From Anaerolineae bacterium (GTDB lineage Bacteria; Chloroflexota; Anaerolineae; Promineifilales; Promineifilaceae): 48,238 nt of DNA. Made by a program: the position numbers and the translations under genes. The notes beneath the pieces were generated by a model. The model ran no database searches, had not been told where the DNA came from, and worked only from the letters and a program-made list of their open reading frames with translations. The first letter of the stretch is position 1; each line of letters begins with the position of its first letter. Shown here piece after piece: positions 1,558 to 22,327 of the stretch. The stretch covers positions 1-48,238 of the forward strand of contig JANQGC010000027.1 of the NCBI GenBank assembly GCA_028277515.1, written 5' to 3'.

Positions 1558-1577
1558 AGAATGTAGGGTGTTGATGA

Positions 1578-2216: not shown

Positions 2217-2223
2217 GAATAAG

Positions 2224-2252
2224 AGTATAGAAGCTCGGCCGGCCATCGACAA
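2224..2252 (-). promoter_or_regulatory. Candidate sigma-70 promoter for kynB operon
   Basis: Read on the minus strand: TTGTCG (2252-2247), a 17-nt spacer, then TATACT (2229-2224). The expected start point is about 7 nt further, at or next to the kynB ATG at 2216. This would give a leaderless transcript and agrees with the lack of a ribosome binding site. The spacer contains CGGCCGG. Inferred from consensus only. Confidence 0.45.
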
Positions 2253-3592: not shown

Positions 3593-3660
3593 TTTCGTGT
3601 TGGGAAAACGTCTGCCGCCAATCAAGTTCCCAATGATCAAGTGTGATAAAAGAGGGTGTT

Positions 3661-4038
3661 ATGAATCCAGAAAAAGGTTTCCATAATGAGAAACTGCTTG
3701 AAGTGGGCCAAATCGAAGAACGGCCGTTTCAATCCACGGTCCCAATCATTGGCCCTTTAATCGCCGGTTTTCGTAATTTTTGGAACAGTATGGCGGCAAA
3801 ATGGGCCTATCGGCAGTTGATTCAACAGCAAAACGCCTTCAACGCCCAGGTTGTGCAGCGCCTGACTGAATTAGAGAACCAGGTTTACCAGCAGATGATT
3901 GAGCAAGATAGAGAGCAAACCCATCTACTCAGAGAAACGGCCGAACTATCAACAACTTTGACGCAGCTAAACCGCTTGCTACAAGATTTGGACAAGCGCC
4001 TGGCTCGAATGGAAATCTCTCAAGAGAAAGAGAATTAA
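3661..4038 (+). CDS. Small coiled-coil protein of the GT-cluster family, copy 1
   Basis: A 125-residue protein of unknown function and the first of four related proteins in this cluster. A short N-terminus leads to the shared core VPIIGPLIAGFR (about residues 29-40), an amphipathic stretch NFWNSMAAKWAYRQLIQQQNAF, and a long C-terminal helix with heptad-like spacing (RLTELENQVYQQM, ELSTTLTQLNRLLQDLDKRL). There is no signal peptide and no full transmembrane helix. Start: ATG at 3661, preceded by AAAAGAGGGTG. An upstream in-frame GTG at 3643 lacks a site. The next gene, a GT4 glycosyltransferase, begins 1 bp after the stop. This copy lacks the N-terminal EIM-x-EI box seen in copies 2-4. A glycosyltransferase partner or membrane-association role is inferred only from location and the amphipathic helix. 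Confidence 0.8.
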   Translation: MNPEKGFHNEKLLEVGQIEERPFQSTVPIIGPLIAGFRNFWNSMAAKWAYRQLIQQQNAFNAQVVQRLTELENQVYQQMIEQDREQTHLLRETAELSTTLTQLNRLLQDLDKRLARMEISQEKEN

Positions 4039-4039
4039 C

Positions 4040-5254
4040 TTGCCTGAGATAAAATTCCCCGTCCAAAGACCGGTGAAAATCGCCTACTTCAGCCCTTTCC
4101 CTCCCGACCGTAGTGGCATTGCCGCTTACAGCAGAGAACTGATGCCACATTTAGCAAATTTTGCCGAGATTACCCTATATGCCCCAAGGCCGGAGCATCT
4201 TCCTGAAGATTTTCGCCAAAACTTCGAGCTGCGCCATTTACTCGATTTTGACCAGGATCGTAGCCGCTACGATGTAAATTTATACCAGATGGGCAATAGT
4301 GAATATCATGAAGCGCTCTATTCAGTGCTGCTGCGGTATCCCGGCATTGTGGTTTTACATGACTATTTTCTGCATCACTTCATCGTACATCGCACCTTAG
4401 GGAAGCAAGATGAACATACTTATGCCCGGGAATTGGGATATGTGCTTGGATCTGAGGGGTATTACCTGGCGCAGGCGATTTGCAGAGACGATAGCTCTTT
4501 GCCTTTATACAAAGAACCATTGAATCAACGGGCGTTGGACTCAAGTTTAAGTGTGATTGTACACAGTGAGTTTGTCGCCGCTAAGGTGCGCGGGGATTCG
4601 TTTGACCGGCCGGTTTATGTCATCCCACAAATTATGGAAAGTTCGGCCGGCCAATCGCGCCGGGATGAGTTAGACCTTGGTCCTGATGCTTTGCTTTTTG
4701 CCGGTTTTGGTCTCATATCTTCGGCCAAACAAATAGATTTCTTCTTGAAAACTTTCAAAATGTTGCGCAAAACGCATCCGCAAGCTCATTTCTTGCTGGT
4801 TGGTGAGACGATGCCTGATGCCGATCCAACTGGACTGATTCAAGAATTGGCATTACAAGATGTGGTTCATCATATAGGCTATGTTCCGGATTTGAATGAT
4901 TTTATGGATTGGGTTTTTACGGCCGATGTCGTCATCAATCTGCGCCACCCAACGGCGGGAGAAACCTCGGCCGGCGCCTTACGGGCTATGGCAGCCGGCA
5001 AACCCATCGTCGTGTTTGATCATGGTTGGTATGCCGAAATCCCTGATGGGGCAGCGGTGAAGGTTCCGCTGATGGACCAGAAGGCCTTGTTGGAAGCCAT
5101 CGTACAGCTTGCTGATTCCAGGCAACTTCGCCGGTCAATTGGCGAAAAAGCAAGGCAGACCGTTAAAGAAGAAAATAATCCAAACCTTGTCTCCGCAGCT
5201 TATCTCTCAGCTATCCAAAGCACCTTGAAATTTTATTGGCAGCGTTATGGCTAA
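4040..5254 (+). CDS. GT4 family glycosyltransferase
   Basis: Retaining GT-B-fold glycosyltransferase, probably cytosolic and membrane-associated, adding a sugar from a nucleotide donor to a growing polysaccharide. The N-terminal Rossmann domain starts VKIAYFSPFPPDRSGIAAYS, with the glycine-containing acceptor loop. The C-terminal donor domain has LLFAGFGLISSAKQIDFFLKTF, HFLLVGE, VHHIGYVPD and the donor-loop segment RHPTAGETSAGALRAMAAGKP. In that loop the first Glu of the usual E-x7-E pair is kept (GET), but the second position is Ala. This form is seen in one GT4 subgroup. Start: TTG at 4040. A GTG at 4073 is an alternative that would begin just before the first beta strand. It overlaps the next gene by 8 bp, indicating translational coupling. 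Acceptor and sugar are unknown. Confidence 0.86.
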   Translation: MPEIKFPVQRPVKIAYFSPFPPDRSGIAAYSRELMPHLANFAEITLYAPRPEHLPEDFRQNFELRHLLDFDQDRSRYDVNLYQMGNSEYHEALYSVLLRYPGIVVLHDYFLHHFIVHRTLGKQDEHTYARELGYVLGSEGYYLAQAICRDDSSLPLYKEPLNQRALDSSLSVIVHSEFVAAKVRGDSFDRPVYVIPQIMESSAGQSRRDELDLGPDALLFAGFGLISSAKQIDFFLKTFKMLRKTHPQAHFLLVGETMPDADPTGLIQELALQDVVHHIGYVPDLNDFMDWVFTADVVINLRHPTAGETSAGALRAMAAGKPIVVFDHGWYAEIPDGAAVKVPLMDQKALLEAIVQLADSRQLRRSIGEKARQTVKEENNPNLVSAAYLSAIQSTLKFYWQRYG

Positions 5255-7412
5255 CTATCTGGTGATCCTATACATCTTGCTATGCGCATTTTCATTAGGA
5301 AGCCTTGTCCTGCTTCAGTTTCTGACATTCCCTGTGCGGTTGCGATTAAATTTGATTTTTGCATCTATCTCGTTGGGAATTGGCGTAAGCGGGTGGATAG
5401 CCCTGGTCCTGGCCGAAGCCGGATTATTTTCACTCCGGAATTTGTTCTTGTGCTGGGGGGTGGTATTCTTGGTGCTGCTGATTCTGTTTTGGTGGCGAAA
5501 ACTGAGAGGTGGGGAAAACAAACCAGGCATACTTCTGGACATTGATTTACCTCCGGCCGGCCGAAATTGGCGAAGATGGATTGAAGGGATCATTCTTGTT
5601 ACTTGGATCGCGGCTGCGGGATGGCTCTTTTTTCGGCCGCATGAATATATTATGGGTGGCGCTGACGCCGGGGTCTATATCAGTTTAGGAGCGGAAATTG
5701 CCCAAAATGGCGGGTTTAAAATTACGGATGATCATCTCGCCACGCTTGACCCGGTTTTTTCCTCGGCCGTGTTGAGACCTTTGCTGGAAAATCCGGTTGC
5801 TTCCTCTTATCTGGTTCCAGGATTTTATGTGTCTGATGCCGGGGAAGGGGCGATCACCCCGCAGTTTTATCCACTGCATCCTACCTGGCTGGCGATTGCC
5901 TTTTCCTTGGCAGGCGATATTGTGGCCGGTGTAAGAACTGAACTGTTGTTGACCGGTTTATGGATGTTACTGTCCACATTATCTTTGTATTTGATCGTTC
6001 GCCAGTTGTCAGGAAAATATGCGGCCGTCCTTCTGTTGATCGCCTTTTCGCTCACAGCTTTGCAAGTCTGGTTCGCCCGCTATCCGGCAACCGAAGCATT
6101 GGCGCAATTTTTGTTGTGGACGGGATTGTGGGCGTTAATGACCTGGCTGGATCAACGGGAGCCACGTTCCATGTGGGCGCTCCTGGCCGGTTTGATGTTA
6201 GGGTCCGTTTTCCTGGTGCGCATTGATATCTTGATCATGCTGCCCATTTTCGTGCTTTTCATCGTTGCCTTGTGGGGGCGTGGTTGGCAAAAGAGTAATT
6301 GGTGGTTTTTGCTACCCTTTACATTTTTGATCATCCATTCTTTAAGTCATGGAATTGTGCTAAGCGCCCCCTATTTTTATGAACATATTGGTTTTGGGCT
6401 GCGTATTTTGTCACGTAGTTGGTTGGTTCCAGTCCTGGCAGTTTTAATAGGCACTATTTTCCTGGTCCTTGTCTATTATTTCAAAGGCCGTTTTTCGGGT
6501 CTAGAGAGGTTCCAGCGCTCATTACAAATGACGCTTATTGCTTTGATTTTATTGGGTGCTCTATATGGCTGGTTTATCCGTCCTTTGGGAGGGCAATCAC
6601 TTTTGGTCATGGATGCCTTCAGTCAGTCAACCATTTTGCTTGCCAATCATGAAAATTTTCTTCGCCTGGGCTGGTATCTTTTCCCAACCGGGGTTTGGTT
6701 TGGGATAATTGGCTGCTGCCTGCTCATATGGCATGCACAGTGGAAAACGGCCGTATTACTGGCGGTTGGGTTATTATTTTCCGCCCTATATTTGTGGGAT
6801 GTCAGAGCCAACCCCCATCACGTTTACGTCATGCGCCGCTACGTGCCGGTCGCCTTTCCATTTTTTATCCTATGCGGGGCTTACTTGCTGGGTTGGTTGG
6901 TCAAATGGCCCCGCGATTGGCAATCACTTCCTCCTCTTCGATTTTTTCTAGGTATGATATTAGCTGTCATCTGGCTTTTCGGACTGGGCTGGTCGGCCAG
7001 AGGTTTTATCAGCCAGGTCGATCATTTTGGTGTCTACGATCAATTGGTAGCCCTTGAAGAGGCGTTTGATCCGAACTCCATCTTAGTTTTTAATGACCAA
7101 TCACCTGTTGGTCTTGGTGATTTTTGGGGAACGCCATTGAAGTTTATATTTGGTCATGACGTATACAGCCTGCGCGATCCTGAAATATTACATAGTCCAC
7201 AGTTGGTTGAAATGATTGAAATCTGGCAGAATAACGGCCGATCGGTGGTTTGGATCGGCGAGTCCACCTGGTTGGAAAATCATGGCTTTCCTTACCAACA
7301 GGAGATTGTTGAGATTCACAGCCAACGATTGGAAAGCAGTTATGAACATAAGCCACAAGCGATTGTGCCGGTGCGCTGGATTCTGCCAATATCTCATATT
7401 GAACAGCGGTGA
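5247..7412 (+). CDS. PMT/ArnT-like polytopic membrane glycosyltransferase
   Basis: A 721-residue integral membrane protein of the GT-C fold, the type that uses polyprenyl-phosphate sugars and transfers them on the outer face of the membrane. More than ten hydrophobic segments run from residue 5 to about residue 590. The first large external loop carries GGADAGVYISLGAEIAQNG (about residues 137-155), which has the acidic D-x motif typical of GT-C enzymes. YVMRRYVPVAFPFFILCGAYL near residue 530 resembles the later signature of this group. A soluble C-terminal domain of about 120 residues follows. The ATG at 5247 overlaps the GT4 stop by 8 bp. The next coiled-coil gene follows 8 bp after its stop. 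Donor and acceptor are unknown. It could modify the glycan or a surface protein. Confidence 0.8.
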   Translation: MANYLVILYILLCAFSLGSLVLLQFLTFPVRLRLNLIFASISLGIGVSGWIALVLAEAGLFSLRNLFLCWGVVFLVLLILFWWRKLRGGENKPGILLDIDLPPAGRNWRRWIEGIILVTWIAAAGWLFFRPHEYIMGGADAGVYISLGAEIAQNGGFKITDDHLATLDPVFSSAVLRPLLENPVASSYLVPGFYVSDAGEGAITPQFYPLHPTWLAIAFSLAGDIVAGVRTELLLTGLWMLLSTLSLYLIVRQLSGKYAAVLLLIAFSLTALQVWFARYPATEALAQFLLWTGLWALMTWLDQREPRSMWALLAGLMLGSVFLVRIDILIMLPIFVLFIVALWGRGWQKSNWWFLLPFTFLIIHSLSHGIVLSAPYFYEHIGFGLRILSRSWLVPVLAVLIGTIFLVLVYYFKGRFSGLERFQRSLQMTLIALILLGALYGWFIRPLGGQSLLVMDAFSQSTILLANHENFLRLGWYLFPTGVWFGIIGCCLLIWHAQWKTAVLLAVGLLFSALYLWDVRANPHHVYVMRRYVPVAFPFFILCGAYLLGWLVKWPRDWQSLPPLRFFLGMILAVIWLFGLGWSARGFISQVDHFGVYDQLVALEEAFDPNSILVFNDQSPVGLGDFWGTPLKFIFGHDVYSLRDPEILHSPQLVEMIEIWQNNGRSVVWIGESTWLENHGFPYQQEIVEIHSQRLESSYEHKPQAIVPVRWILPISHIEQR

Positions 7413-7420
7413 ACGATTAA

Positions 7421-7798
7421 ATGAATGAAACAAATGACGTCAATATTGAAGAAATAATGCAAGAGATTCGGCAGCAAATATTGCAGCAAAGACGGGTTGG
7501 CAAGCCCCCGCTGCCGGTTAAAGGAGATCGCCTATCCCCCCAATTTTATGAGCAGCTTTACCAGGCGACTCTGCTGCAAGGGGAGGTGGGCGTAAAAATC
7601 CAGGTGTCTCCCTCCGGAGTTCCCTTAATAGGCCCGATCATTGATAAATTAAGAGAAAAAATACATGAGCTTGTTCTTTTTTATGTCAATCAATCCGTTT
7701 CTCAACAGGCTGCCATTAACGATCATATTTTGCAGCTCATTACATTGTTAAGCCAGGAGATGGAGGAGGATGTCACGGAATCTGATGCAGGTCGCTAA
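7421..7798 (+). CDS. Small coiled-coil protein of the GT-cluster family, copy 2
   Basis: A 125-residue paralogue of the proteins at 3661, 11123 and 13895. It shows the full layout in compact form. An N-terminal box NIEEIMQEIRQQILQQRR (residues 8-25) comes first, then a Pro-rich linker with FYEQLY. The core VPLIGPIIDKLREKIHELVL (about residues 67-86) leads into FYVNQSVSQQAAINDHIL and a Leu-rich helix. It has no signal peptide and no cysteine. It sits 8 bp behind the PMT-type gene. Its last 29 bp overlap the start used for the propeller gene at 7770. Function is unknown. The repeated association with glycosyltransferases suggests a scaffold or activator, but this is inference. Confidence 0.82.
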   Translation: MNETNDVNIEEIMQEIRQQILQQRRVGKPPLPVKGDRLSPQFYEQLYQATLLQGEVGVKIQVSPSGVPLIGPIIDKLREKIHELVLFYVNQSVSQQAAINDHILQLITLLSQEMEEDVTESDAGR

Positions 7799-9938
7799 GT
7801 TTATGCAAGATGGACAAAAATATTTACCTCAGTTGAAAATGAAGTCAACAAAGAAAGCATTTTTGGTGATGCCTTCATTATTTGTCGCCTTGCTGCTGAT
7901 TCTTCTTGTATATCCGGCCAACAGTGACAATGACAGCATGACATTGCCTCCTGGCTTCTCGGTGAAAACAATTGCCGGTGGTCTCACTTTTCCTGTCGAT
8001 ATGGAGTTCCTGCCCTCCGGAGATATTATCGTTGCGGAAAAAGGATCAGGACAGTTTGAAGATAGCTGGTCATCCATAAAACTGGTTCGAAATGGCGTTG
8101 TGCAAGAAAATCCGGTGCTAACCTTAAGCACGAATTCTTTTTGGGATTCGGGAATTTTAGGATTAGTTTTGGATCCTGATTTCCAAATCAATCATTATTT
8201 TTACGTGTGGTATGCTACTGGCATCAATAGTCCAGGTTGGCAAGGGGAAACGAAGCTCAGATTATCACGTTTTGAATTTAACCCGCAAACCGGCACGGCC
8301 AATCCCGCTTCGGAGTTACTGCTGCTCGAAGATGAGCCTTGGCACCAGATCCATCACGGCAACGGGCTTTTATTTGATGATGCGGGTAATTTGTTGCTGT
8401 CTATGGGCAATCGAGGCAATCTCGCATCATCTCAAGATTTAAGCCTTCTTTATGGCAAGGTGATTCGGATTCGTCCGACCGAAATGGGGTACGAAATTCC
8501 TCCTGACAACCCATTTCTCACTGATCCCGTTGCGCGACCCGAAATCTTTACGATAGGTTTTCGTAATCCGTACCGGTTGGCTAAGCGCGCGTCGGATGGG
8601 CTGATTGTGCTAGGAGATGTAGGGGCCAAAACGTGGGAAGAAATTGATATTATTACGCCCGGCGCGAATTACGGTTTTCCTGAGAGGGAAGGGCCATGCC
8701 CTTATGGTCAGAAAAAACCTTGCGATCCGGCGCCACCCCATTTCACCGATCCGGCCATAACCTATGCGCATGATGAGTCCTTGGGAGTTGGGACCAGCGG
8801 TGCGGTCACCGGTTTAGCATTTTATGAAGGAAATGCCTTCCCGCAAGAATATCAAAACAAATTGTTTTTCGCCGATTTCAATCAAAATTTTATGGCTTCT
8901 GCCGATCCCCTTAATGGCACGTTTGAACTTTTTGCTGAAAACAGTGACAGTATTGTCGATATCGAATATTTTAACCAGGGATTGTATCTGTTGGAGATTC
9001 GCAATGGCAGAATTGTTGTTGTTTTCTACAGTGGGCAAGACAATCAAGTACCTGAAGCTGCGTTATCTGCCGCCCCAACAATGGGTCCCTCTCCGCTGCG
9101 GGTTGCCTTTTCTGCGGCCGGCAGTTCGGATCCCGATGATCTCGTACTTAAATACCATTGGGATTTTGGCGATGGGTCGCCGCCGATCATCACAGATGAA
9201 TCGGATGTGCAGCACACCTATCAAATGGATGGCACTTTTCAAGCCGGGTTGAAAGTGGTCGATATTCGCGGCGGAGAATCAGACATTGTTGAAGAAACGA
9301 TCACTGTCTACTCAGGTGAATTTCCGGCGATTCATTTAGAGAACCTGACCGCCCCTTCCAGGACAAAATATCATGGTGGAGACGAATGGCTTTATGAGGC
9401 TCAGCGGTCAAATTTGGATGGACTTGATCCGGCTCAACCCTTTTCATGGCAGATTGATTTCCACCACAACCAGCATAGCCATCCTTTGATTTCAAATTCT
9501 TCGGTGATTAGTGATGTGCTCGACATTTCAACTGACAATCATGGGGGAGATTGGAATCTATGGTACAAATTTAACCTGACGATGTTTACGAAAGATGGGC
9601 AAGAAGTAACAGTCAGTAAGGAAATTTTTCCAGTATGGGTAGATTTACAAATAGAAACTCGACCGCGATCGGCGCAAATCAGTGTCAATCAAGCCGATCA
9701 ACTGGCTCCGCACACGTACCGGGCAATTGTGGGGACGGAACAAGAAATTGAGGCACATCCGCAAACGATATTCGAGCACGATATTTGGACATTCTCTCAT
9801 TGGCTGGAAAATGGACTGTTTGTGACCGGCGACCCAATCTTGCTCATTCCGGCGCCAGACAATCGCAAGAGATATACGGCCACCTATATATATGACCGGC
9901 CGGCCCAGAATATGTGGCTTCCGATCATCATGAATTAA
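7770..9938 (+). CDS. Secreted PQQ-type sugar dehydrogenase-like beta-propeller with PKD domain
   Basis: Exported protein with a six-bladed propeller of the soluble glucose/sorbosone dehydrogenase family (PQQ-dependent GDH fold). Visible landmarks are LPPGFSVKTIAGGLTFPVDMEFLPSGDIIVAEKG cut by blades, HHGNGLLFDDAGNLLLSMGN (His-Gly motif near the active site), GFRNPYRLA and GANYGFPEREG. A PKD domain follows (about residues 427-515, containing YHWDFGDGSPP). A beta-rich tail ends with WLPIIMN. The ATG at 7770 has AGGAG 10 nt upstream. An internal ATG at 7839 would start a cleaner signal peptide (MKSTKKAF plus a Leu-rich core, AxS near the cleavage site). It overlaps the previous gene and ends 7 bp before the next GT4 start. 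A role in oxidising or binding the glycan is inferred. Confidence 0.8.
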   Translation: MSRNLMQVAKFMQDGQKYLPQLKMKSTKKAFLVMPSLFVALLLILLVYPANSDNDSMTLPPGFSVKTIAGGLTFPVDMEFLPSGDIIVAEKGSGQFEDSWSSIKLVRNGVVQENPVLTLSTNSFWDSGILGLVLDPDFQINHYFYVWYATGINSPGWQGETKLRLSRFEFNPQTGTANPASELLLLEDEPWHQIHHGNGLLFDDAGNLLLSMGNRGNLASSQDLSLLYGKVIRIRPTEMGYEIPPDNPFLTDPVARPEIFTIGFRNPYRLAKRASDGLIVLGDVGAKTWEEIDIITPGANYGFPEREGPCPYGQKKPCDPAPPHFTDPAITYAHDESLGVGTSGAVTGLAFYEGNAFPQEYQNKLFFADFNQNFMASADPLNGTFELFAENSDSIVDIEYFNQGLYLLEIRNGRIVVVFYSGQDNQVPEAALSAAPTMGPSPLRVAFSAAGSSDPDDLVLKYHWDFGDGSPPIITDESDVQHTYQMDGTFQAGLKVVDIRGGESDIVEETITVYSGEFPAIHLENLTAPSRTKYHGGDEWLYEAQRSNLDGLDPAQPFSWQIDFHHNQHSHPLISNSSVISDVLDISTDNHGGDWNLWYKFNLTMFTKDGQEVTVSKEIFPVWVDLQIETRPRSAQISVNQADQLAPHTYRAIVGTEQEIEAHPQTIFEHDIWTFSHWLENGLFVTGDPILLIPAPDNRKRYTATYIYDRPAQNMWLPIIMN

Positions 9939-9945
9939 CTTGCTG

Positions 9946-11133
9946 ATGAAAATCGCTTTTGTTTCCCCCTGGTATGGCTCTCATATTCCTGGCGGGATGG
10001 AGTCTGAGACCCGAAGAACCGCTGCTCATTTACAAGCTGCCGGATTCCAGGTTGAGGTACTCACGACCTGTATTCGGGACTTTTTTTCGAGCTGGGATAA
10101 GAATTATCACCGGCCGGGAATCAGCAGAGAGGATGGCATTCCCGTTCGCCGCTTTGCGGTTGAACGAACGGATCGCCCTGCTTTTCAATGGGCCAGTTGG
10201 CGATTACAGCAGGGGCAACGTCTGACCAGAGCAGAAGAACTGGTGTACCAGAAGGAAATGATACGCTGTCCAAATTTATTGGACCACATCGCATCCGAGG
10301 ATCAGGAAACAATATTCTTTTTCATCCCTTATCTCTTCTCCACAACAATTGAGGGAACACAGATCTGGCCTGAACGTTCGGCGATCATCCCCTGCCTTCA
10401 CGATGAAAGTTATGCTTATCTTGACATTATGAAAGATGTTATTTTGAAGGTGAGAGCGTTGATTCTGCATAGTGTGGCAGAGTTGGAACTGGTTGAAAAC
10501 ATCTATGGATCGCAACCCCAACAAATTCGGCAGGTGATTGGTGAAGGGCTCGATACGGATATTGAGGTAAATGCCGATCGATTCCGGAAAAAATTTGAAA
10601 TTGAAGAGCCGTTTATACTTATGGCTGGCCGCCGTGATCCTGGCAAAAATACGCAGCTCTTGCTGCACTATTGGCGGCGATATGCCCAGGAACAAAAGCT
10701 CGACTATAAGCTGGTGCTCATGGGTCCCGGTGCTGTACAGATTGATTCTGATTTGCAGGAGTATGTCATTGACTTAGGCTATGTCGACCGGCAGGATAAA
10801 TTTGATGCTTTTGCGGCGGCCACCATCTTATGCCAGCCGTCTGTTCATGAGAGTTTCTCACTGGTAATCATGGAGTCCTGGTTGGCAGAAACGCCGGTTT
10901 TGGTTCATGGTCACTGCGCTGTTACAGTCGAACATTGCCGTCAAAGTAATGGGGGTCTTTATTTCACTACCTACCCGGAATTTGCGGAAACGGTTGCTTA
11001 CTTATTTACAAATGAGACGGTAAGGAGCAAAATGGGAAAGAACGGTCGTGAATATGTCCTCGATAATTATCAATGGCCAACCGTGATGGAAAAATATCGA
11101 CGCTTGATTGGAGAGTTGCAACATGCAGGATAG
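9946..11133 (+). CDS. GT4 glycosyltransferase, type A copy 1
   Basis: A 395-residue GT-B-fold glycosyltransferase. The N-terminus reads MKIAFVSPWYGSHIPGGMESE with the Gly-Gly acceptor loop. LTTC and GIPVRRFAVERTD, shared with the enzymes at 12696 and 14402, follow. The donor domain has ILMAGRRDPGKN and QPSVHESFSLVIMESW, an E-x7-E motif. The C-terminus keeps a block found in all three type A copies (HGHCAVTVEHCRQSNGGLYF, then TYPEFAETV). Start: ATG at 9946. A TTG six bases earlier is possible, since the junction AATTAACTTGC matches that before the GT4 gene at 4040. It overlaps the next coiled-coil gene by 11 bp. The sugar and acceptor are unknown. Confidence 0.87.
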   Translation: MKIAFVSPWYGSHIPGGMESETRRTAAHLQAAGFQVEVLTTCIRDFFSSWDKNYHRPGISREDGIPVRRFAVERTDRPAFQWASWRLQQGQRLTRAEELVYQKEMIRCPNLLDHIASEDQETIFFFIPYLFSTTIEGTQIWPERSAIIPCLHDESYAYLDIMKDVILKVRALILHSVAELELVENIYGSQPQQIRQVIGEGLDTDIEVNADRFRKKFEIEEPFILMAGRRDPGKNTQLLLHYWRRYAQEQKLDYKLVLMGPGAVQIDSDLQEYVIDLGYVDRQDKFDAFAAATILCQPSVHESFSLVIMESWLAETPVLVHGHCAVTVEHCRQSNGGLYFTTYPEFAETVAYLFTNETVRSKMGKNGREYVLDNYQWPTVMEKYRRLIGELQHAG

Positions 11134-11605
11134 AGAACATTGGTTGGAAATACACGATCCGGAGATCAGTTCGGCCGATCTGGTTGCCGAGATAGACAGA
11201 CGAGTTGCCAGGCGCCGCGATGAATTAGGAGAAGTAAGGTTACTCTTCCCGACTTTTGGAACTATTTCTCAATTTCCTGAACCACCCTCAGATCGGCCGT
11301 ATAATCCCAATTTATATCATCACCTGAGGCAAGCAAATGAGATAAACCCGCCACCGACCGCCCCTATTCTGGCCAATTCCCCGGCCACCCAAGTCCCACT
11401 ACTGGGTCGCTTTTGGCAAATGATTCGGGGGCAGGTCCATGAATTGATCCTGTTTTATGTCAATCGCCATATTGCTTATCAGTCGAAGTTAGACAATCAT
11501 CTGATCAGCTCGTTAAATGAGTTGACCCGGATCGTTGAAATGCAGCGCGAAGAAATTGACAACCTGAGGCAGGAGGTTGAGACGCTCAAGAAGGATCAAC
11601 GGTGA
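11123..11605 (+). CDS. Small coiled-coil protein of the GT-cluster family, copy 3
   Basis: A 160-residue paralogue. Its N-terminal box is SSADLVAEIDRRVARRR, a variant of EIM-x-EI. A longer Pro-rich linker follows with YNPNLYHHL, then the core VPLLGRFWQMIRGQVHELIL and FYVNRHIAYQSKLDNHL. The C-terminal coiled coil is MQREEIDNLRQEVETLKK. The start at ATG 11123 has GGAGAG 6-7 nt upstream, inside the preceding GT4 gene, and overlaps it by 11 bp. Its stop TGA shares one base with the ATG of the next GT4 (TGATG). Such tight coupling to a glycosyltransferase on both sides argues for co-production at fixed ratio. Function is unknown. Confidence 0.83.
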   Translation: MQDREHWLEIHDPEISSADLVAEIDRRVARRRDELGEVRLLFPTFGTISQFPEPPSDRPYNPNLYHHLRQANEINPPPTAPILANSPATQVPLLGRFWQMIRGQVHELILFYVNRHIAYQSKLDNHLISSLNELTRIVEMQREEIDNLRQEVETLKKDQR

Positions 11606-12699
11606 TGCCAAACGAACTGCACCAATTTTTGACCGGGGCAACGGCCGGTGATGCGATAACCGGGCAGGCATTAATTATCCGTCGTTGGTTAAGGGAGTTG
11701 GGCTTCAAATCCCATATCTATGCTCAATATATTCATAGAAGCATGGAAACGGAAGTGCGGCATCTTTCTTCCTATCGAAAAAGTCCAAAAGGGGATTGGG
11801 CAATTTACCATCATAGTATCGGATCTGATTTACCCCAATTTCTGAAACGGCAAAAACCCCGGCTGATGTTGATTTACCATAACATAACACCGACTCCATA
11901 CTTTGTAAGGAGTGATCCCGGAAGGGCTGAATTAGCCCGTATGGGTTTGCAGCAGTTGCAAAACCTCAAATCAATTACTGAATTGGCTGTCGCCGTATCG
12001 CCCTTTAATAGATTGGATTTGCAGGAAGCGGGTTATGCGCAGGCGGAGGTGCTGCCTATAACCCTGCGTCCAGAGGATTACGATTGGCCGGACAATGAAA
12101 CTCTAGTAGAGCAACTCAGTAACGGGGGACCAACTTTGCTATTCGTCGGCCGACTGGCTCCCAATAAAAAACAAGAAGATTTGGTCAGGCTGCTCACTTA
12201 CTGCCGGCGGCTCAATCCTGAAATAAGGCTCATTCTGGTAGGAGATCGTTGGGAGATTGGCTATGATACCTGGGTGGAGCAGATGGCAGAAGCGTTTGGG
12301 GTTGCAGATGGTTTGACCTTAACCGGCAAGGTTTCACAACAAGATCTGGTGACCTATTACCGGCATGCTTCCATTTATGTCTCCATGAGTGAACATGAAG
12401 GTTTCGGGGTGCCATTGATTGAAAGTATGTATTTGGGACTGCCGGTCATGGCTTACGCTGCGTCGGCCGTTCCCGACACCATGGGTCCGGCAGGTCTCCT
12501 CTTTTATGAAAAAGAGTTTGAGCGATTAGCAGAATTGGTGTCTTTATTATTGGATGATCAAGCCTTGCGGAAACGATTAATAGAGAGACAGTATCAGCGA
12601 ATACAAGATTACCTGGAACCGAATGTAAAGAAAAAGTTTCTTGGTTACTTACAACAAGCAGGCATCCTGCAAATTGAAAAAAGCGGGGCGGCCTGGTGA
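11605..12699 (+). CDS. GT4 glycosyltransferase, type B copy 1
   Basis: A 364-residue GT-B enzyme, clearly paralogous to the one at 15563. Shared features are HQFLTGATAGDAIT near the start, WLRELGFKSHIYA, a double-His segment IYHHSIGSDL, LIYHNITPTPYF and FVGRLAPNKKQEDL in the donor domain. The E-x7-E motif is SEHEGFGVPLIESMYLGLP. The start is ATG at 11605, fused to the preceding stop as TGATG. The GTG at 11602 would add one Met. The stop overlaps the next GT4 start by 4 bp (GTGA). The protein is most likely a cytosolic-face transferase in polysaccharide assembly. Specificity cannot be predicted from sequence alone. Confidence 0.87.
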   Translation: MPNELHQFLTGATAGDAITGQALIIRRWLRELGFKSHIYAQYIHRSMETEVRHLSSYRKSPKGDWAIYHHSIGSDLPQFLKRQKPRLMLIYHNITPTPYFVRSDPGRAELARMGLQQLQNLKSITELAVAVSPFNRLDLQEAGYAQAEVLPITLRPEDYDWPDNETLVEQLSNGGPTLLFVGRLAPNKKQEDLVRLLTYCRRLNPEIRLILVGDRWEIGYDTWVEQMAEAFGVADGLTLTGKVSQQDLVTYYRHASIYVSMSEHEGFGVPLIESMYLGLPVMAYAASAVPDTMGPAGLLFYEKEFERLAELVSLLLDDQALRKRLIERQYQRIQDYLEPNVKKKFLGYLQQAGILQIEKSGAAW

Positions 12700-13865
12700 A
12701 AATTGCCCTGGTCGTTCAGCGGTATGGTGAGGAAGTCAATGGTGGGGCTGAACTGCATGCCCGCTGGCTTGCTGAACACTTGCTGCACTTGGCTGAAGTA
12801 CATGTCATCACAACTTGTGCTGTCGATTACAATACCTGGAAGAACGAATATCCACCAGGTGAAAGCGAGTTTAATGGCGTTCAGATTCACCGCTTTACAG
12901 TTGACCGTTTACGTATTCTGGACATGAGACAGCGCACGGCCGCGTTGTTGTTTAAAGAGCATTCATTATTCGACGAATATCGTTGGATCAAAGACCAGGG
13001 ACCTTATTCAACGGGAATGTTTGATTTTATTCATGCCTCATATGATAGTTTTGATTTTTTTATATTTTTCACATATCTTTATGCGCCAACCTTTTTTGGC
13101 TTGCCCCTTGTATCCGATAAGGCGATCCTTGTGCCCACAGCGCATGAAGAACCCTATATAAAATTCCCTGTTTTTCGATCCCTGTTTCATCTACCGCAGG
13201 TGATTGTATATAACACGGAGCCTGAAAGGGATTACGTCCATCAAATTACCGCCAACCAACAGGTTCCTGGCGTGATTGCTGGGATTGGGATCAATGTGCC
13301 TGCTGAGCTAGATGCACAACGGTTTCGCCGGAAATTTGGCGTTGAAGAAGATTTCATTCTCTACGTTGGTAGAGTGGATCAGTCTAAAAATGTACCGGAG
13401 CTGCTGGATAATTTTTCACGCTTTCAATTTGAGCAAAACCGGTCCTTGAAACTGCTGCTTATGGGTCGGGTGAATCTTGAACTGCCGGACCATCCTGACA
13501 TCCTCTCGTTGGGTTTTGTTTCCGAGCAAGATAAGTTTGATGCATTACAGGCAGCCAGGGTATTAGTCATGCCTTCCATTTATGAAAGTTTGTCTATGAT
13601 TTGCCTGGAAGCATGGTTTGTAGAAAAACCGGTCCTGGTGAATGGGCACTGCACCGTGCTCAAACACCAATGCCAACAGAGTAATGGCGGACTTTACTAC
13701 CATACGTATGACGAATTCTCACAAGCCTTGTTAGCTCTGTTAGATAATCCGGATTTGAACCACAAATTAGGCAGGCAGGGTCGTGATTTTGTTAAATGCC
13801 GCTATGATTGGGACATTATATTGGCCAAATACGAAGCGATTTTTGAGGTCCTTTCTGGCCAATAG
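12696..13865 (+). CDS. GT4 glycosyltransferase, type A copy 2
   Basis: A 389-residue GT-B enzyme starting with GTG at 12696, which overlaps the upstream stop by 4 bp. The N-terminus MKIALVVQRYGEEVNGGAEL holds the acceptor loop. ITTCAVDYNTWKNEYPPG and GVQIHRFTVDR match the type A pattern. The donor domain has ILYVGRVDQSKNVPELL, PSIYESLSMICLEAW (E-x7-E) and NGHCTVLKHQCQQSNGGLYY. It is paralogous to 9946 and 14402. Together with the type B gene just upstream it forms an A/B pair that is repeated at 14402-16642 in the opposite internal order. The substrate is unknown. Confidence 0.87.
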   Translation: MKIALVVQRYGEEVNGGAELHARWLAEHLLHLAEVHVITTCAVDYNTWKNEYPPGESEFNGVQIHRFTVDRLRILDMRQRTAALLFKEHSLFDEYRWIKDQGPYSTGMFDFIHASYDSFDFFIFFTYLYAPTFFGLPLVSDKAILVPTAHEEPYIKFPVFRSLFHLPQVIVYNTEPERDYVHQITANQQVPGVIAGIGINVPAELDAQRFRRKFGVEEDFILYVGRVDQSKNVPELLDNFSRFQFEQNRSLKLLLMGRVNLELPDHPDILSLGFVSEQDKFDALQAARVLVMPSIYESLSMICLEAWFVEKPVLVNGHCTVLKHQCQQSNGGLYYHTYDEFSQALLALLDNPDLNHKLGRQGRDFVKCRYDWDIILAKYEAIFEVLSGQ

Positions 13866-13894
13866 ATTTGCAACTGGAGATGTGACTGGCAACA

Positions 13895-14395
13895 ATGGAA
13901 AATGGGTCAATTGATGAGGGAAAACCAACCCCCATTCCTATAGAGGATTTTGAGGTCGACCCCAAAGAAATCATGGCTGAAATTCAATCAAAGTTATTGG
14001 ATTCCGGGCGTCTTTTCGAGGGTGAACATCCCCAACTCCCCCCTTATCATCGAACCAATTACCCGGAAAAACCGGATGATATCCCATATGATTTGGGACT
14101 TTACCAGTTGTTGGACAGTATAAAACAAAATCTTAAATTGACCGGAACTGAATTGGATATTAGGGAAAGTGGCTTCAGCCGTTTGCCCATCATCGGCCGT
14201 CTTTGGAGGAAAATGCAATGGATGCTGCATGGTCCAGCCCATTACTATGCCAACCGCACAGCGGAAAGGCAGGCGGAGATAAACGGCCAGGTTTTCCAAA
14301 TATTAAGCAAGCTCCTGGCTGAAAATCAGGAGCGACAAAGAGAAATAGCGCGATTGCAAGAAGAACTGGAGCAGTTGCGAGGAGAAGGTCGTTAA
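13895..14395 (+). CDS. Small coiled-coil protein of the GT-cluster family, copy 4
   Basis: A 166-residue paralogue and the longest copy. The N-terminal box is VDPKEIMAEIQSKLL (about residues 21-35). A Pro-rich linker contains YDLGLYQLLDSI, matching YNPNLYHHL of copy 3. The core is LPIIGRLWRKMQWMLHG, then YYANRTAERQAEINGQVF. A strongly charged C-terminal coiled coil follows (RQREIARLQEELEQLRGEG). It sits between two type A glycosyltransferases, 29 bp after one and 6 bp before the next. No signal peptide or complete membrane helix is present. Function is unknown, and the conserved core could be an amphipathic membrane-binding helix. Confidence 0.83.
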   Translation: MENGSIDEGKPTPIPIEDFEVDPKEIMAEIQSKLLDSGRLFEGEHPQLPPYHRTNYPEKPDDIPYDLGLYQLLDSIKQNLKLTGTELDIRESGFSRLPIIGRLWRKMQWMLHGPAHYYANRTAERQAEINGQVFQILSKLLAENQERQREIARLQEELEQLRGEGR

Positions 14396-15562: not shown

Positions 15563-16642
15563 GTGAAGCATCAAATAATGCATCAATTTACGGAAGGAAT
15601 GTATCGCGGAGATGCGGTGAGTGATCATGTCTTGCTGATTCAAAAATGGCTGAAGGAGATGGGCTTCGTTTCCCACATTTATGCTACAAAATTTGAAACG
15701 ATATTCCAGGATGTGGTGCGGCCGGTTCAAGAGTACGAGCCGGACGCGGCTGAGCAATGCCTGGTTCATCATCATGCCGTCGGTTCGGTTATGGCAGAGC
15801 GGCTGAAAAACGTTCATTTACCCCAGGTTTTAGTTTACCATAACATTACACCACCAGAGTTTTATAAGACGTCAAACCCAGCGCTGAGCGCCCAACTCCT
15901 GAAGGGGCGCAGGCAGCTAGAAGACATGCGCCAACGGACGATATTAGCTTTGGCCGACTCCCCCTACAATGAGAAGGAATTGTTGGATTTAGGGTATGAA
16001 AATACGGCCGTCTTGCCTATCGTTCTGCAAGAATCTAATTACAAATTGCCGTTAGACGTGACCCTTTCGGCGAAAACAAAGGAACGAAGGCCATCATTTC
16101 TATTTGTCGGCCGTGTTGCCCCCAATAAAAAACAAGAGGATTTATTAAATTTTCTTTACTGCTATCAACGGTTACAGTCAAATGCCCGTTTGATTTTAGT
16201 AGGCAGCCTGGATAATGAGGCTTATGTCAACTGGTTGCAGGAATACGCAAACAGCTTGAGATTAAAACGGGATGACGTCATTTTTACCGGGCATGTAAGC
16301 CAACAGGAGCTGGTGACCTACTATTCCTCGGCCGATCTTTATATTTCAATGAGTGAACATGAAGGATTCGGCAAACCGTTAATCGAAAGCATGTATCATG
16401 GCTTGCCAATCCTAGCCTTTGCTTCCACCGCTGTTCCATACACACTGGGTGATGCCGGCGTATTGTTTAATGTCAAAGATTTTGAGGCGTTAGCCGAGGC
16501 TGCTGATTTCATCCTCGAAAATGAGCAGTTTCGAGAGCGTATCATTCAGCAGCAGAATGCCAGGGTTCAATCATTCCTGGAACAACATGTTCGGAAAACC
16601 TGGCAAAAATTGCTGAATCAGCTGCCATTAAGATTAAGTTAG
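15563..16642 (+). CDS. GT4 glycosyltransferase, type B copy 2
   Basis: A 359-residue paralogue of the protein at 11605. The GTG start at 15563 is preferred over ATG 15578, because MKHQIMHQF then aligns residue for residue with MMPNELHQF of copy 1. Shared segments are GDAV, WLKEMGFVSHIYA, VHHHAVGSV, LVYHNITPPEFY, FVGRVAPNKKQEDLL and the E-x7-E block SEHEGFGKPLIESMYHGLP. It is the last gene of the first tight GT block. A 122-bp gap with no clear terminator separates it from the next gene. Confidence 0.87.
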   Translation: MKHQIMHQFTEGMYRGDAVSDHVLLIQKWLKEMGFVSHIYATKFETIFQDVVRPVQEYEPDAAEQCLVHHHAVGSVMAERLKNVHLPQVLVYHNITPPEFYKTSNPALSAQLLKGRRQLEDMRQRTILALADSPYNEKELLDLGYENTAVLPIVLQESNYKLPLDVTLSAKTKERRPSFLFVGRVAPNKKQEDLLNFLYCYQRLQSNARLILVGSLDNEAYVNWLQEYANSLRLKRDDVIFTGHVSQQELVTYYSSADLYISMSEHEGFGKPLIESMYHGLPILAFASTAVPYTLGDAGVLFNVKDFEALAEAADFILENEQFRERIIQQQNARVQSFLEQHVRKTWQKLLNQLPLRLS

Positions 16643-16764
16643 TATTATTAATCCCATTGAAGAATCGAACTTATATCCTCGCATTATCAAATCCATAGTT
16701 TAAAATACCGTCCGACAACGAACGTTTCGTAAATAAATCACAATCTTTCGAAGAGGAGTAAGTG

Positions 16765-18765: not shown

Positions 18766-20019
18766 ATGCATGTCTTGATCGTCACTCCAGCCTTTCCGCC
18801 GTTTGTTGGGGGCGGGGAGCGCCACACCGGAACCCTGGCCAAACAGCTTCACCAACGAGGCCATACGGTTTCTGTGCTGACCAGCCATGCAACCCATGAA
18901 CGAGACTTTTGGCTTGGTGCTGAAGGAGAGTTAAGCTGTGAAACATTAGAGCCAGGCCTGACCATTATCAGAGTTCCGGTCAAGCCGGTAAGGGGGGGAT
19001 GGCAAGGATTGCTTGCCTGGCGGAAAGCGATGGTCTCGTTTTCCGCTTTGCCGGGCACTTTAGGCTTGTTGCAAAAAATGGCCGAAAAGGTACCGTCGCT
19101 GCAAAAGATAAATAAAGCCCTGGCGGCGGTCGACTATCCTGTGGATGTGATCCACGGTTTTAATATCTCCTGGGAATATCCCATGATGGCGGCCTGGCGG
19201 TATGCGCAGGAGCAACAACGCCCGTTTGTTGCTTCCCCATTAGCACACCTGGGAACCGGTCCAAAAGATAAGGTCGCGTTAAATTCAACGATGCGCCACC
19301 AACGGGTTATGTTGGAGACGGCCGACATGCTAATCACCAACACAGTCCTGGAGGCCCAGGGATTGAAAGAGCGGGGCGTCAATCTGAGAGATTTTAGAGT
19401 CGCCGGCCCTGGCGTAGACATTCCACAAACCGTCGCTTCATTTCCTGAAGAAAATCTACCGCAAAAACCATTTGTTTTATTTATAGGTCGAGCAACGGCC
19501 GAAAAAGGGGCTATTCATGCCGCCCAGGCTGTGTTGAAGTTGAGGCGTGGAGGCAGCGATATTCGCCTGGCCATGATTGGACGAGGAACAGACACTTTCA
19601 ACCAATATTACAATGATCTTTCCCCGATTGAACAAGAGGGTATTTTTCACCTGGGTCTTGTTCATGAGAGCCTCAAGCATGCATATCTAAAAGAAGCGCG
19701 GGCGCTATTGCTTCCTTCAAGGACGGATTCATTTGGTATCGTTCTGCTGGAGTCCTGGCTGCACGGCCGTCCGGTCATTGCTGCAAACGCAGGCGGTATC
19801 CCCGCCGTGGTTGATGATGGCCAGAATGGGATTCTTGTTCCCTATGGGGATGTGCAGGCATTGGCTGAGGCGGTGCGGCTTTTGGTTCAGGATTCACAGT
19901 TAAACCAGGAAATGGGGGAAAAAGGATACCAAAAACTTATGGCCCGGTATACCTGGGAGGCTGTGACCGATATTGTAGAGGAAGCCTATCAGGCTACAAT
20001 TGCTTCGCATAGTAAATAA
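18766..20019 (+). CDS. GT4 family glycosyltransferase
   Basis: A 417-residue GT-B-fold enzyme. The N-terminus MHVLIVTPAFPPFVGGGERH is a classical GT4 acceptor-domain start. The donor domain has FVLFIGRATAEKGAIHAAQAV, LAMIGRGTD and the motif LLPSRTDSFGIVLLESWLHGRP. Here the first acidic residue of E-x7-E is Asp rather than Glu. It belongs to a different subgroup from types A and B upstream. It begins 18 bp after the FG-GAP gene and is followed after 2 bp by another GT4, so these are co-transcribed. The sugar specificity is unknown. Confidence 0.87.
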   Translation: MHVLIVTPAFPPFVGGGERHTGTLAKQLHQRGHTVSVLTSHATHERDFWLGAEGELSCETLEPGLTIIRVPVKPVRGGWQGLLAWRKAMVSFSALPGTLGLLQKMAEKVPSLQKINKALAAVDYPVDVIHGFNISWEYPMMAAWRYAQEQQRPFVASPLAHLGTGPKDKVALNSTMRHQRVMLETADMLITNTVLEAQGLKERGVNLRDFRVAGPGVDIPQTVASFPEENLPQKPFVLFIGRATAEKGAIHAAQAVLKLRRGGSDIRLAMIGRGTDTFNQYYNDLSPIEQEGIFHLGLVHESLKHAYLKEARALLLPSRTDSFGIVLLESWLHGRPVIAANAGGIPAVVDDGQNGILVPYGDVQALAEAVRLLVQDSQLNQEMGEKGYQKLMARYTWEAVTDIVEEAYQATIASHSK

Positions 20020-20021
20020 TC

Positions 20022-21299
20022 ATGCGGATATTACACCTGGTTCATCAATATCCACCTCATTTCATCGGCGGAACCGAACTGTACACGCAAACACTGGCCA
20101 AATACCAGGCGCTTGCGGGTCATGATGTCTCGGTCTTCTGTCCCTATCCTGATGTTGGATCGGGGGAAAATGTTCTGAAAACTGAAGAGGGGGGCGTCCA
20201 AGTTTTTCGTGTCGGCTTGCAGCCGCGTTCACGTTCACAGATCTTTTTCGACTCTTTCAGGCAAGCCGCACTTCAAAGTGCTCTTAAGAACGTACTGATT
20301 GAATTGAAACCGGATCTGGTCCATATCCAACATCTGATGGGTTTGCCCATTGACCTGATCAATCATCTGGCTACTCAGGGGATTCCCAGCGTTCTGACCT
20401 TACATGATTACTGGTATGTGTGTGCCAATGCCCAATTGTTGACGAATACGAATCAGGAGATTTGTAACGGTCCTGATTTCTTATATTTCAACTGCGCGCG
20501 CTGCGCACTGGCACGAGCCGGACGGCCGAACCTGAGTTGGCTGGCGCCGGCTGTGGCACCGCTGATGGGTTTCCGAAATCGTCAATTAAGTAGGGTCTTG
20601 CAGCAGGCGAGTGAAATTATTGCTCCTACACATTTTGTCAAGCAAATTTATACGCGCTTGGGAGCATCAGCAGCTAAGATGGTCGTGATCAAACACGGTC
20701 TTGAACTGCCGGAGGATAAGGTAAAAGCTGCGCGAGAAAAGCGAAGAAATAAGCAAGCCGCCCTCCCCCTTCATATCGGTTATATCGGCGGCATCAGCCG
20801 GCAGAAAGGGCTGCATGTGCTGGTTGAAGCAGTAAATGGGTTGGCTGAAGATGAGATTGAACTTACGATATACGGTGACCTCTCTGTCTTTCCGGATTAT
20901 GTCCAAGAATTGAGACATTTAATTCGCCACAACCATATTAACCTGGTTGGTTCTATTGCCCATGAGGATATCTGGCCGGCACTGGCCGAATTCGATGTCA
21001 TTGTCCTGCCAACTCTCTGGTATGAGACTTCCTCTTTGATTTTAGATGAAGCCTTTGCAGCAGGAGTTCCGGTCATTGCCACGCGGTTAGGAGTCATGGA
21101 GGAAAAGATTGAGGATGATGTGAACGGCCGTCTGTTTCCTGTCGGAGATATAGTTGCCTTACGTGAAGTTCTCAAGACGTTAGTTGAACGACGGGAAACA
21201 GTGAGTCGCTGGAGGCATAACATTCCAGAAGTTCAAACCATTGAAGCGTATATAAAGGAAATCGAAGACGTTTATCACGAAGTGCTGCATGGGTTATAA
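20022..21299 (+). CDS. GT4 family glycosyltransferase
   Basis: A 425-residue GT-B enzyme starting MRILHLVHQYPPHFIGGTELY. PDLVHIQHLMGLP is typical of group-1 transferases. A cysteine-containing insert reads LLTNTNQEICNGPDFLYFNC, then ARCALARAG. Related GT4 proteins carry a similar C-x2-C element. The donor domain has HIGYIGGISRQKGLHVLVEAV and the E-x7-E motif PTLWYETSSLILDEAFAAGVP. It starts 2 bp after the previous stop and is the last GT in the cluster. A 121-bp gap with an inverted-repeat element separates it from the export permease. Confidence 0.87.
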   Translation: MRILHLVHQYPPHFIGGTELYTQTLAKYQALAGHDVSVFCPYPDVGSGENVLKTEEGGVQVFRVGLQPRSRSQIFFDSFRQAALQSALKNVLIELKPDLVHIQHLMGLPIDLINHLATQGIPSVLTLHDYWYVCANAQLLTNTNQEICNGPDFLYFNCARCALARAGRPNLSWLAPAVAPLMGFRNRQLSRVLQQASEIIAPTHFVKQIYTRLGASAAKMVVIKHGLELPEDKVKAAREKRRNKQAALPLHIGYIGGISRQKGLHVLVEAVNGLAEDEIELTIYGDLSVFPDYVQELRHLIRHNHINLVGSIAHEDIWPALAEFDVIVLPTLWYETSSLILDEAFAAGVPVIATRLGVMEEKIEDDVNGRLFPVGDIVALREVLKTLVERRETVSRWRHNIPEVQTIEAYIKEIEDVYHEVLHGL

Positions 21300-22323: not shown

Positions 22324-22327
22324 ATTA

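What the first reader, a model, noticed from the sequence alone, without database searches (positions are those of the whole stretch)
3661..14395. Four-copy family of small coiled-coil proteins woven into the glycosyltransferase cluster
The genes at 3661, 7421, 11123 and 13895 encode 125-166 residue proteins that share a core [VL]P[LI][IL]G[PR], then an amphipathic stretch ending in a [FY]Y-x-N box or its counterpart, then a Leu/Gln-rich coiled coil. Copies 2-4 also share an N-terminal E-I-M-x-E-I-like box and a tyrosine-bearing Pro-rich linker ([YF]-x-L/Y). Each abuts or overlaps a glycosyltransferase gene, by 11 bp, TGATG, 1 bp or 6 bp. No known enzymatic motif is present. The pattern suggests a GT-specific partner, such as a membrane-docking or oligomerising subunit matched to each transferase. 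This is the best candidate here for an undescribed system.
Basis: partly seen in the sequence, partly recalled or inferred. Interest (0 to 1): 0.78.

Follow-up and report, generated by a model that had tools for sequence, protein, structure and literature searches.

The report
Detachable coiled-coil unit of sugar transferases
Four small helical proteins in a Chloroflexota sugar-polymer gene cluster belong to an unnamed family that elsewhere occurs either right beside sugar-transferring enzymes or fused to them, which suggests a plug-in subunit that tethers and gathers the enzymes that build a cell-surface glycan.

Summary
The observation largely holds. Four related small genes (3661-4038, 7421-7798, 11123-11605, 13895-14395, + strand) lie in a glycosyltransferase (GT) cluster. 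They form one divergent, unnamed family with two subfamilies: copies 2-4, and copy 1, linked to the rest by the core. One detail is wrong: copy 2 does not touch a GT4 gene. It lies 8 bp after a PMT_2 membrane-GT gene and before a GSDH-PKD gene.

Hits found by the family profiles alone in Chloroflexota genomes gave 245 distinct open frames. Of 144 stand-alone copies with a called downstream gene, 107 are followed directly by a GT4 gene, against 65 of 683 unrelated genes in the same stretches. Of 85 copies in long frames, 79 share the frame with a GT2, GT4 or methyltransferase. The GT4 lineage beside copy 1 in the window carries the copy-1 unit as its own N-terminus in six relatives, five of them in the window gene's nearest clade.

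The unit is therefore a cis/trans-exchangeable accessory domain of glycan-assembly enzymes: a short conserved helix and Pro-rich linker (copies 2-4), a core helix and a coiled coil. Most likely it tethers its enzyme at the membrane and oligomerises it, resembling the WbdD scaffold principle without detected homology. The association is shown; the mechanism is inferred.

The parts
3661..4038 (+). copy 1: 125 aa, subfamily ERPFxSTVPIIGPLI..WNSVATKWYxRPLIQQQNxFN + coiled coil (GTG start at 3643 also possible)
   Evidence: profile A4; heptad periodicity
4040..5254 (+). GT4 partner of copy 1 (SGIADY type); fused to the copy-1 unit in relatives L005, L007, L014, L175, L177, L193
5247..7412 (+). PMT_2 membrane glycosyltransferase, 8 bp upstream of copy 2
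   Evidence: PF13231, 31.8 bits, cut-off 26.1
7421..7798 (+). copy 2: 125 aa; EIMQEI box, PLIGP core, FYVN, short coil
7770..9938 (+). GSDH-PKD protein between copy 2 and its usual GT4 (not a GT)
9940..11133 (+). GT4 (TPWYG type), a common downstream partner of copy-2-type proteins in other genomes
11123..11605 (+). copy 3: 160 aa; predicted helices 17-35, 62-73, 94-159
11602..12699 (+). GT4 (HQF type) directly after copy 3
12696..13865 (+). GT4 (RYG type) without its own copy
13895..14395 (+). copy 4: 166 aa
14402..15559 (+). GT4 (RYG type) partner of copy 4
15563..16642 (+). GT4 (HQF type) without its own copy
18766..21299 (+). two further GT4 genes (18766-20019, 20022-21299) of types that rarely carry the unit
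21421..22323 (+). ABC-2 permease (Wzm-like) of the cluster
   Evidence: PF01061
22307..23911 (+). LytR-CpsA-Psr ligase-like protein
   Evidence: PF03816

Best explanation
The four genes encode stand-alone versions of one portable accessory unit of cytoplasmic glycan-assembly enzymes. SHOWN by sequence: the unit is mostly encoded directly upstream of particular GT4 enzymes, often with overlapping stop and start codons, and in other genomes it shares the open frame of GT2, GT4 or methyltransferase enzymes, at either end. For one GT4 type the same slot is filled in three ways: a separate gene, part of a GT2 encoded directly upstream, or the N-terminus of the GT4 itself. INFERRED: the unit binds its enzyme in trans where it is separate. 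The P-x-x-G core helix lies in the membrane interface and brings the enzyme to the lipid-linked glycan. The C-terminal coiled coil oligomerises the enzyme, or joins it to neighbouring enzymes of the same pathway (Wzm-type ABC export, LCP attachment). The N-terminal EIMxEI helix and Pro-rich linker of copies 2-4 are the likely enzyme- or hub-docking part.
For: Genome searches with unit profiles alone gave 245 distinct ORFs. Of 144 stand-alone copies with a called downstream gene, 107 have a GT4 next (same strand, <300 bp), against 65 of 683 other called genes (odds ratio 27, Fisher p 2e-56) and 130 of 332 GT4 genes. Pfam confirms GT4 in 87 of 106 and 26 of 42 downstream proteins. Gaps, with start codons chosen by script: 101 of 116 pairs overlap or lie within 30 bp, 30 with exactly a 4-bp overlap. 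Same open frame as an enzyme: 79 of 85 long ORFs, namely GT2-unit 47, GT4-unit 13, unit-GT4 6, unit-methyltransferase 6, FkbM 5, GT4-unit-methyltransferase 2 (Pfam tallies). Of 52 GT4s of the 4040 type: 21 with a separate unit, 10 with the unit in the ORF directly upstream (a GT2 in all 10), 6 fused, 11 without, 4 at contig ends (the stricter rule gave 19/10/6/13/4). The window's GT4 groups with a clade of five fused ones and one cut by a contig end (SH-aLRT 87). A unit-FkbM fusion (L007, L005, L175) is split into two adjacent genes in L017. One fusion-bearing locus (L175) is on a 3.99-Mb contig, so it is unlikely to be a binning artefact. Unit type follows GT type. GT types 18766 and 20022 seldom have the unit: 16 of 75 and 5 of 36 (contig ends left out). 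Coil: 3.5-residue periodicity reached by 0 of 2000 permutations in both subfamilies. No transmembrane segment: 0 of 160 reach KD19 1.9, 4 reach 1.6. AlphaFold2 of copy 3: one helix 94-159, mean pLDDT 81.5.
Against: No binding, membrane or oligomer data exist, and no complex prediction was possible (single chains only). The amphipathic core is only moderately supported: core windows of copies 1-3 rank at 0.7-1.1% of GT background windows, but copy 4's best window ranks at 3.3% and is not the core, and over the alignment the helical periodicity of the core is significant for the copy-1 family (p 0.015) and not for the copy-3 family (p 0.068). In the fusion model the unit is low confidence (block means 40-70 for residues 1-80, 86-87 for 81-100), so no docking pose can be read. 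11 of 48 GT4s of the 4040 type and nearly half of the HQF (49 of 111) and RYG (30 of 64) types have no unit in sight, so it is not obligatory. The window's copy 2 has no adjacent GT4. Of 112 copy-2/3/4-type stand-alones 23, and of 48 copy-1-type ones 20, have no GT4 recognised downstream; some sit by methyltransferases, sulfotransferases, GSDH, other copies, unidentified frames or contig ends. Weak cases among the fusions: 7 of 13 GT4-unit and 4 of 6 unit-methyltransferase ORFs have unit E-values of 1e-5 or weaker, and one of the latter (L182:2787-4745) has no Pfam match. The enzyme profiles were seeded from members of the same set.
Confidence: 0.62

Rival explanations
1. Chain-length ruler: as in WbdD/WbbB, the coiled coil spaces a chain-ending enzyme from the polymerising GT, so its length sets glycan length; the stand-alone copies are spacers rather than tethers.
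For: Same cluster type (Wzm-like permease). Two GT4-unit-methyltransferase fusions put the unit between a GT and a possible terminator (L153, L204). The WbdD coil with membrane helix and polymerase recruitment site is the published precedent (PMC11231755, passages seen).
Against: Several copies per cluster, beside particular GTs rather than one per pathway. By eye the coils are only about 30-65 residues and differ in length between copies. No terminator enzyme is attached to the window copies, and no methyltransferase domain was found in the ORFs of the GT run that were scanned.
Confidence: 0.15
2. Hetero-oligomeric assembly line: the coils of different copies and fused units pair with each other, so that all GTs, and where present methyltransferases, of a pathway form one ordered complex.
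For: Related units sit on or beside several different enzymes of the same cluster. The unit of one slot can belong to either of two neighbouring enzymes.
Against: The coils differ in length and sequence. Nothing here tests pairing between copies; homotypic trimers or dimers are as likely.
Confidence: 0.15
3. Folding or stability helper: the upstream gene is co-translated and only stabilises the GT (chaperone-like), without a lasting tether or scaffold role.
For: Very tight gene coupling (median gap 2 bp).
Against: Permanent fusion to GT2, GT4 and methyltransferases at either end is unusual for a transient helper.
Confidence: 0.06
4. Chance or low-complexity resemblance of unrelated coiled-coil genes.
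For: Copy 1 is only weakly linked to the others by single-profile score.
Against: 0 of 1000 shuffles for each copy; conserved synteny and fusions over many genomes.
Confidence: 0.02

Closest known systems
WbdD-type coiled-coil terminators and their relatives (WbbB, Klebsiella O4 ORF7, O7 ORF6) of ABC-transporter-dependent O-antigen assembly (PMC11231755, passages read)
   Same: Coiled coil plus (here only predicted) amphipathic helix; cytoplasmic glycan assembly with a Wzm-like permease; association with GTs and methyltransferases; modules found fused or on separate polypeptides; published role as membrane-associated scaffold.
   Different: No sequence match: PDB searches with profiles of both subfamilies list no chain named WbdD. 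The window copies carry no catalytic domain, are short, and occur several per cluster.
PglH 'ruler helix' (PMC5792488, abstract read)
   Same: An amphipathic helix that attaches a membrane-associated GT to the membrane.
   Different: In PglH the helix is part of the GT itself; here the unit is a separate gene or a terminal domain with a coiled coil.
GT auxiliary partners such as DesVIII/EryCII (recalled, from no call)
   Same: A separate partner protein encoded beside its GT.
   Different: Those are P450-like folds in macrolide pathways; here small helical proteins.
DUF4214-FkbM methyltransferases
   Same: Some carry the copy-2-type unit at the N-terminus (L007 with DUF4214 over its cut-off, L005 with it below) or beside them as a separate gene (L017).
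   Different: DUF4214 is a separate domain, not found in the window copies.

Membership tests
WbdD/WbbB-type coiled-coil terminator | catalytic chain-terminating domain on the same polypeptide | tested here: not met
   No Pfam domain over cut-off in the four copies; only relatives elsewhere are fused to enzymes.
WbdD/WbbB-type coiled-coil terminator | coiled coil | tested here: met
   Heptad periodicity, 0 of 2000 permutations as high; single helix 94-159 in the copy 3 model.
WbdD/WbbB-type coiled-coil terminator | membrane-associated amphipathic helix | tested here: inconclusive
   Core windows of copies 1-3 rank in the top 0.7-1.1% of GT background windows; copy 4 does not, and the copy-3 family alignment gives p 0.068. 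No membrane data.
WbdD/WbbB-type coiled-coil terminator | recruitment of the polymerase GT | not testable with these tools
   Adjacency and fusion make it likely; no binding test.
WbdD/WbbB-type coiled-coil terminator | sequence homology to WbdD | tested here: not met
   PDB profile searches with both subfamilies list no WbdD at E up to 1; that WbdD is in the PDB is recalled.
PglH ruler-helix GT | ruler helix inside the GT | tested here: not met
   Window copies are separate genes.
Unnamed GT-associated unit family described here | P-x-x-G core helix followed by heptad coil, next to or fused with GT or methyltransferase | tested here: met
   adjacency to a GT4 not met for copy 2, which abuts a PMT_2 gene.

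The most novel reading that the evidence does not exclude
Chloroflexota glycan factories use a plug-and-socket scaffold. Several kinds of cytoplasmic assembly enzyme (GT2, GT4, methyltransferase) have a related helix-plus-coil plug, in cis or in trans, and the plugs hetero-oligomerise on the membrane so that enzymes are brought together in pathway order.
Probability: 0.17. Interest if true: 0.85.

Novelty: new variant of a known kind. Interest (0 to 1): 0.6.

Why it matters
Coiled-coil scaffolds of glycan assembly are known from a few enterobacterial terminator proteins. Here is an unnamed family, found by each profile in about a fifth of the sampled genomes of one Chloroflexota class, in which the scaffold-like module is a separate, repeated, exchangeable gene paired with particular transferases. 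It would give many 'hypothetical proteins' a testable role, mark which GT probably needs a partner for heterologous expression, and offer natural split/fused pairs for studying how sugar-polymer enzymes are arranged.

Tried and rejected
Known families: Pfam and NCBIfam gave only sub-threshold matches, mostly coiled-coil models. PDB by sequence gave only weak, generic matches (ribosomal eS30; designed, viral and other coiled coils). PDB by fold for the copy 3 model gave nothing below E 1.

Plasmids: a tblastn of one copy-1 relative (P0126) found nothing. Whether the unit occurs outside Chloroflexota was therefore not settled. The genome-contig scan of the copy-3 subfamily returned 26 loci, all with Chloroflexota-type titles, but it used subfamily-specific peptide patterns.

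Transmembrane anchor: rejected on hydropathy (0 of 160 at KD19 1.9 or more; 4 at 1.6 or more).

Literature: searches listed no description of such a family in the held open-access library, judged by titles and abstract starts. Most subscription papers are not held. Two papers were opened: PMC11231755 (passages) and PMC5792488 (abstract and outline). The rest were seen as search listings only.

Correction on checking: the adjacency rule missed some GT4s with an N-terminal extension, so it was redone. The numbers moved slightly (4040 type 35 to 37 of 48; RYG 33 to 34 of 64; 18766 type 15 to 16 of 75; others unchanged). Of the six long ORFs that my profiles left unassigned, Pfam finds a GT4 domain in one (L235:8116-9756) and nothing in five.
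Full report
WHAT IS THERE. The window holds, on the + strand, a run of glycan genes from about 4.0 to 23.9 kb: eight GT4 genes, one PMT_2 membrane GT, a Wzm-like ABC-2 permease (21421-22323) and a LytR-CpsA-Psr protein (22307-23911), with two other genes (GSDH-PKD at 7770, FG-GAP at 16762) between them. Copy 2 lies between the PMT_2 gene (8 bp) and the GSDH-PKD gene.

ARE THE FOUR RELATED? A profile made from copy 3 and its close homologues only (A5) picks copies 4, 2 and 1 as the best three other ORFs of the window (E 2e-30, 2e-18, 0.005). No shuffled version of any copy scores as high in 1000 trials each. Copy 1's own family profile likewise ranks copies 2, 4 and 3 next (E 2e-7, 4e-4, 0.012). 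Profile against profile, the two subfamilies align over 49 columns of the core (probability 83%, E 9e-6). So there are two subfamilies: copies 2-4, and copy 1, linked by the core helix.

HOW FAR IT SPREADS. Homologue searches gave 198 proteins at E <= 0.1 for the six-sequence profile (best 120 listed) and 9 for copy 1; none of the listed ones has a Pfam domain. Most named ones are 'hypothetical protein', and the organisms named are Promineifilaceae, Ardenticatenaceae, Anaerolineae or other Chloroflexota. A scan of genome contigs gave 26 loci, all with Chloroflexota-type titles. By profile in whole genomes: copies-2-4 type in 17 of 400 genomes drawn over the phylum and 74 of 396 of one class; copy-1 type in 83 of 396 of that class. 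In these sampled searches at most 9-10 candidates per genome were scored, so these are lower bounds.

NEIGHBOURS. The window and 162 loci (L001-L026, L103-L238) were scanned with the two unit profiles and a GT4 profile made from the window's eight GT4s; 245 distinct unit ORFs, 160 of up to 270 aa and 85 longer. For 144 stand-alone copies with a called downstream gene, 107 (74%) are followed on the same strand within 300 bp by a GT4. The controls from the same stretches are 65 of 683 called genes that are neither GT4 nor unit (some of these calls may be spurious frames), and 130 of 332 GT4 genes. Pfam finds GT4 domains in 87 of 106 (copies-2-4 type) and 26 of 42 (copy-1 type) downstream proteins; the remainder include methyltransferases (FkbM 3, Methyltransf_23 1), sulfotransferase matches in two, GSDH in two, FG-GAP in two, other unit genes and unidentified frames. 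The genes are tightly coupled: of 116 pairs measured, 51 overlap and 50 more are within 30 bp; the commonest arrangement is a 4-bp overlap (30 pairs; start codons chosen by script). The regions are GT-rich, which is why the GT4-to-GT4 control matters.

FUSIONS. In 79 of the 85 long ORFs the unit shares the open frame with a GT or methyltransferase: GT2 then unit 47, GT4 then unit 13, unit then GT4 6, unit then methyltransferase 6, unit then FkbM 3, FkbM then unit 2, GT4-unit-methyltransferase 2; 6 were not assigned by my profiles, one of which has a Pfam GT4 domain. Pfam on the same 85 gives GT2 in up to 47, GT4 in 22, Methyltransf_23 in 7, FkbM in 5. Unit E-values are 1e-5 or weaker in 7 of the 13 GT4-unit and 4 of the 6 unit-methyltransferase cases, and one of the latter (L182:2787-4745) has no Pfam match. 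One fusion-bearing locus, L175, lies on a 3.99-Mb contig with a unit-GT4, a unit-FkbM and a stand-alone unit followed by a GT4.

ONE SLOT, THREE FORMS. GT4s whose best window match is GT 4040 (52) have a separate unit directly upstream in 21, the unit in the ORF directly upstream in 10 (a GT2 in all 10), the unit as their own N-terminus in 6, none in 11, and a contig end in 4 (19/10/6/13/4 by the stricter rule). On the tree of these GT4s the fused state needs two changes, and the window's GT4 groups with a clade of five fused ones plus one cut by a contig end (SH-aLRT 87; quick tree). The alignment shows the fused N-terminus carrying the copy-1 core. A second split/fused pair is the copy-2-type unit with the FkbM methyltransferase (fused in L007, L005, L175; adjacent genes L017:3451-3861 and 3861-4868). 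Joined in some genomes and separate but adjacent in others is the classic sign of physical partnership (established reasoning, not a binding test).

PAIRING. The tree of 117 stand-alone units labelled by downstream GT4 type needs 24 label changes, against a shuffled mean of 66.7 (as low in 0 of 200). This is a quick tree of short sequences, and shuffles do not remove shared ancestry, so it shows clustering, not strict co-evolution. GT types differ in how often they carry the unit: TPWYG 21 of 28, 4040 type 37 of 48, HQF 62 of 111, RYG 34 of 64, but 16 of 75 and 5 of 36 for the 18766 and 20022 types (contig ends left out). Because the loci were chosen for having a unit, only the differences between types are informative.

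ANATOMY. AlphaFold2 of copy 3 with 80 sequences (mean pLDDT 81.5, pTM 0.58) gives helices 17-35 (EIMxEI-like box), 62-73 (YxHLRxAN) and one long helix 94-159 from the P-x-x-G core through the coil. The coil has 3.5-residue hydrophobic periodicity that none of 2000 permutations reached, in both subfamilies. The core is amphipathic in single-sequence windows of copies 1-3 (top 0.7-1.1% of a background of Pro-free windows from the window's GT4s) and not clearly so in copy 4; over the alignments the core's helical periodicity gives p 0.015 for the copy-1 family and 0.068 for the copy-3 family. No stand-alone of 160 reaches a transmembrane-like hydropathy of 1.9, and 4 reach 1.6. The model of a natural fusion (L007, mean pLDDT 85.2) has a normal GT-B fold (best PDB matches GlgM, methylmannose polysaccharide mannosyltransferase, BshA), but its unit is largely low confidence and gives no docking pose.

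EXPLANATION. I take the unit to be a membrane tether and oligomeriser that acts in cis when fused and in trans when separate, with the N-terminal box of copies 2-4 as the likely docking helix. Shown: family, adjacency, fusion, slot exchange, coil periodicity. Inferred: binding, membrane contact, oligomer state, any role in ordering enzymes. [quoted passage not shown] The window proteins are not members of that group by sequence or by having a terminator domain, but may work on the same principle.

NOVELTY. No Pfam or NCBIfam match over cut-off and no meaningful PDB match, and nothing listed in the held literature by eight searches. I rate it a new variant of a known kind: stand-alone, repeated, exchangeable scaffold-like subunits for glycan enzymes.

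Noticed in passing
window 21421-23911: A Wzm-like permease is followed by an LCP protein. By eye no Wzt-like ATPase is in the ORF lists of the window (not searched by profile), so the ATPase may be encoded elsewhere.
   Followed up: no
L005:10563-12821 and L011:2362-4629: Single ORFs of 752 and 755 aa that match the GT4 profile with scores suggesting two GT4 modules; the L005 one begins like the HQF type.
   Followed up: partly
L204:1482-4940 and L153:7218-9890: GT4-unit-methyltransferase triple fusions (1153 and 891 aa), reminiscent of GT-coil-terminator designs.
   Followed up: partly
window 16762-18747: FG-GAP repeat protein inside the GT run; a relative lies in 10 of the 26 loci L001-L026, role unknown.
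   Followed up: no
window 7770-9938: GSDH-PKD gene between copy 2 and GT4 9940; a relative also follows a unit gene in L022:631-1854.
   Followed up: no
window 292-2252: Kynureninase and a cyclase-family gene (possibly kynurenine formamidase) on the - strand beside the glycan cluster.
   Followed up: no
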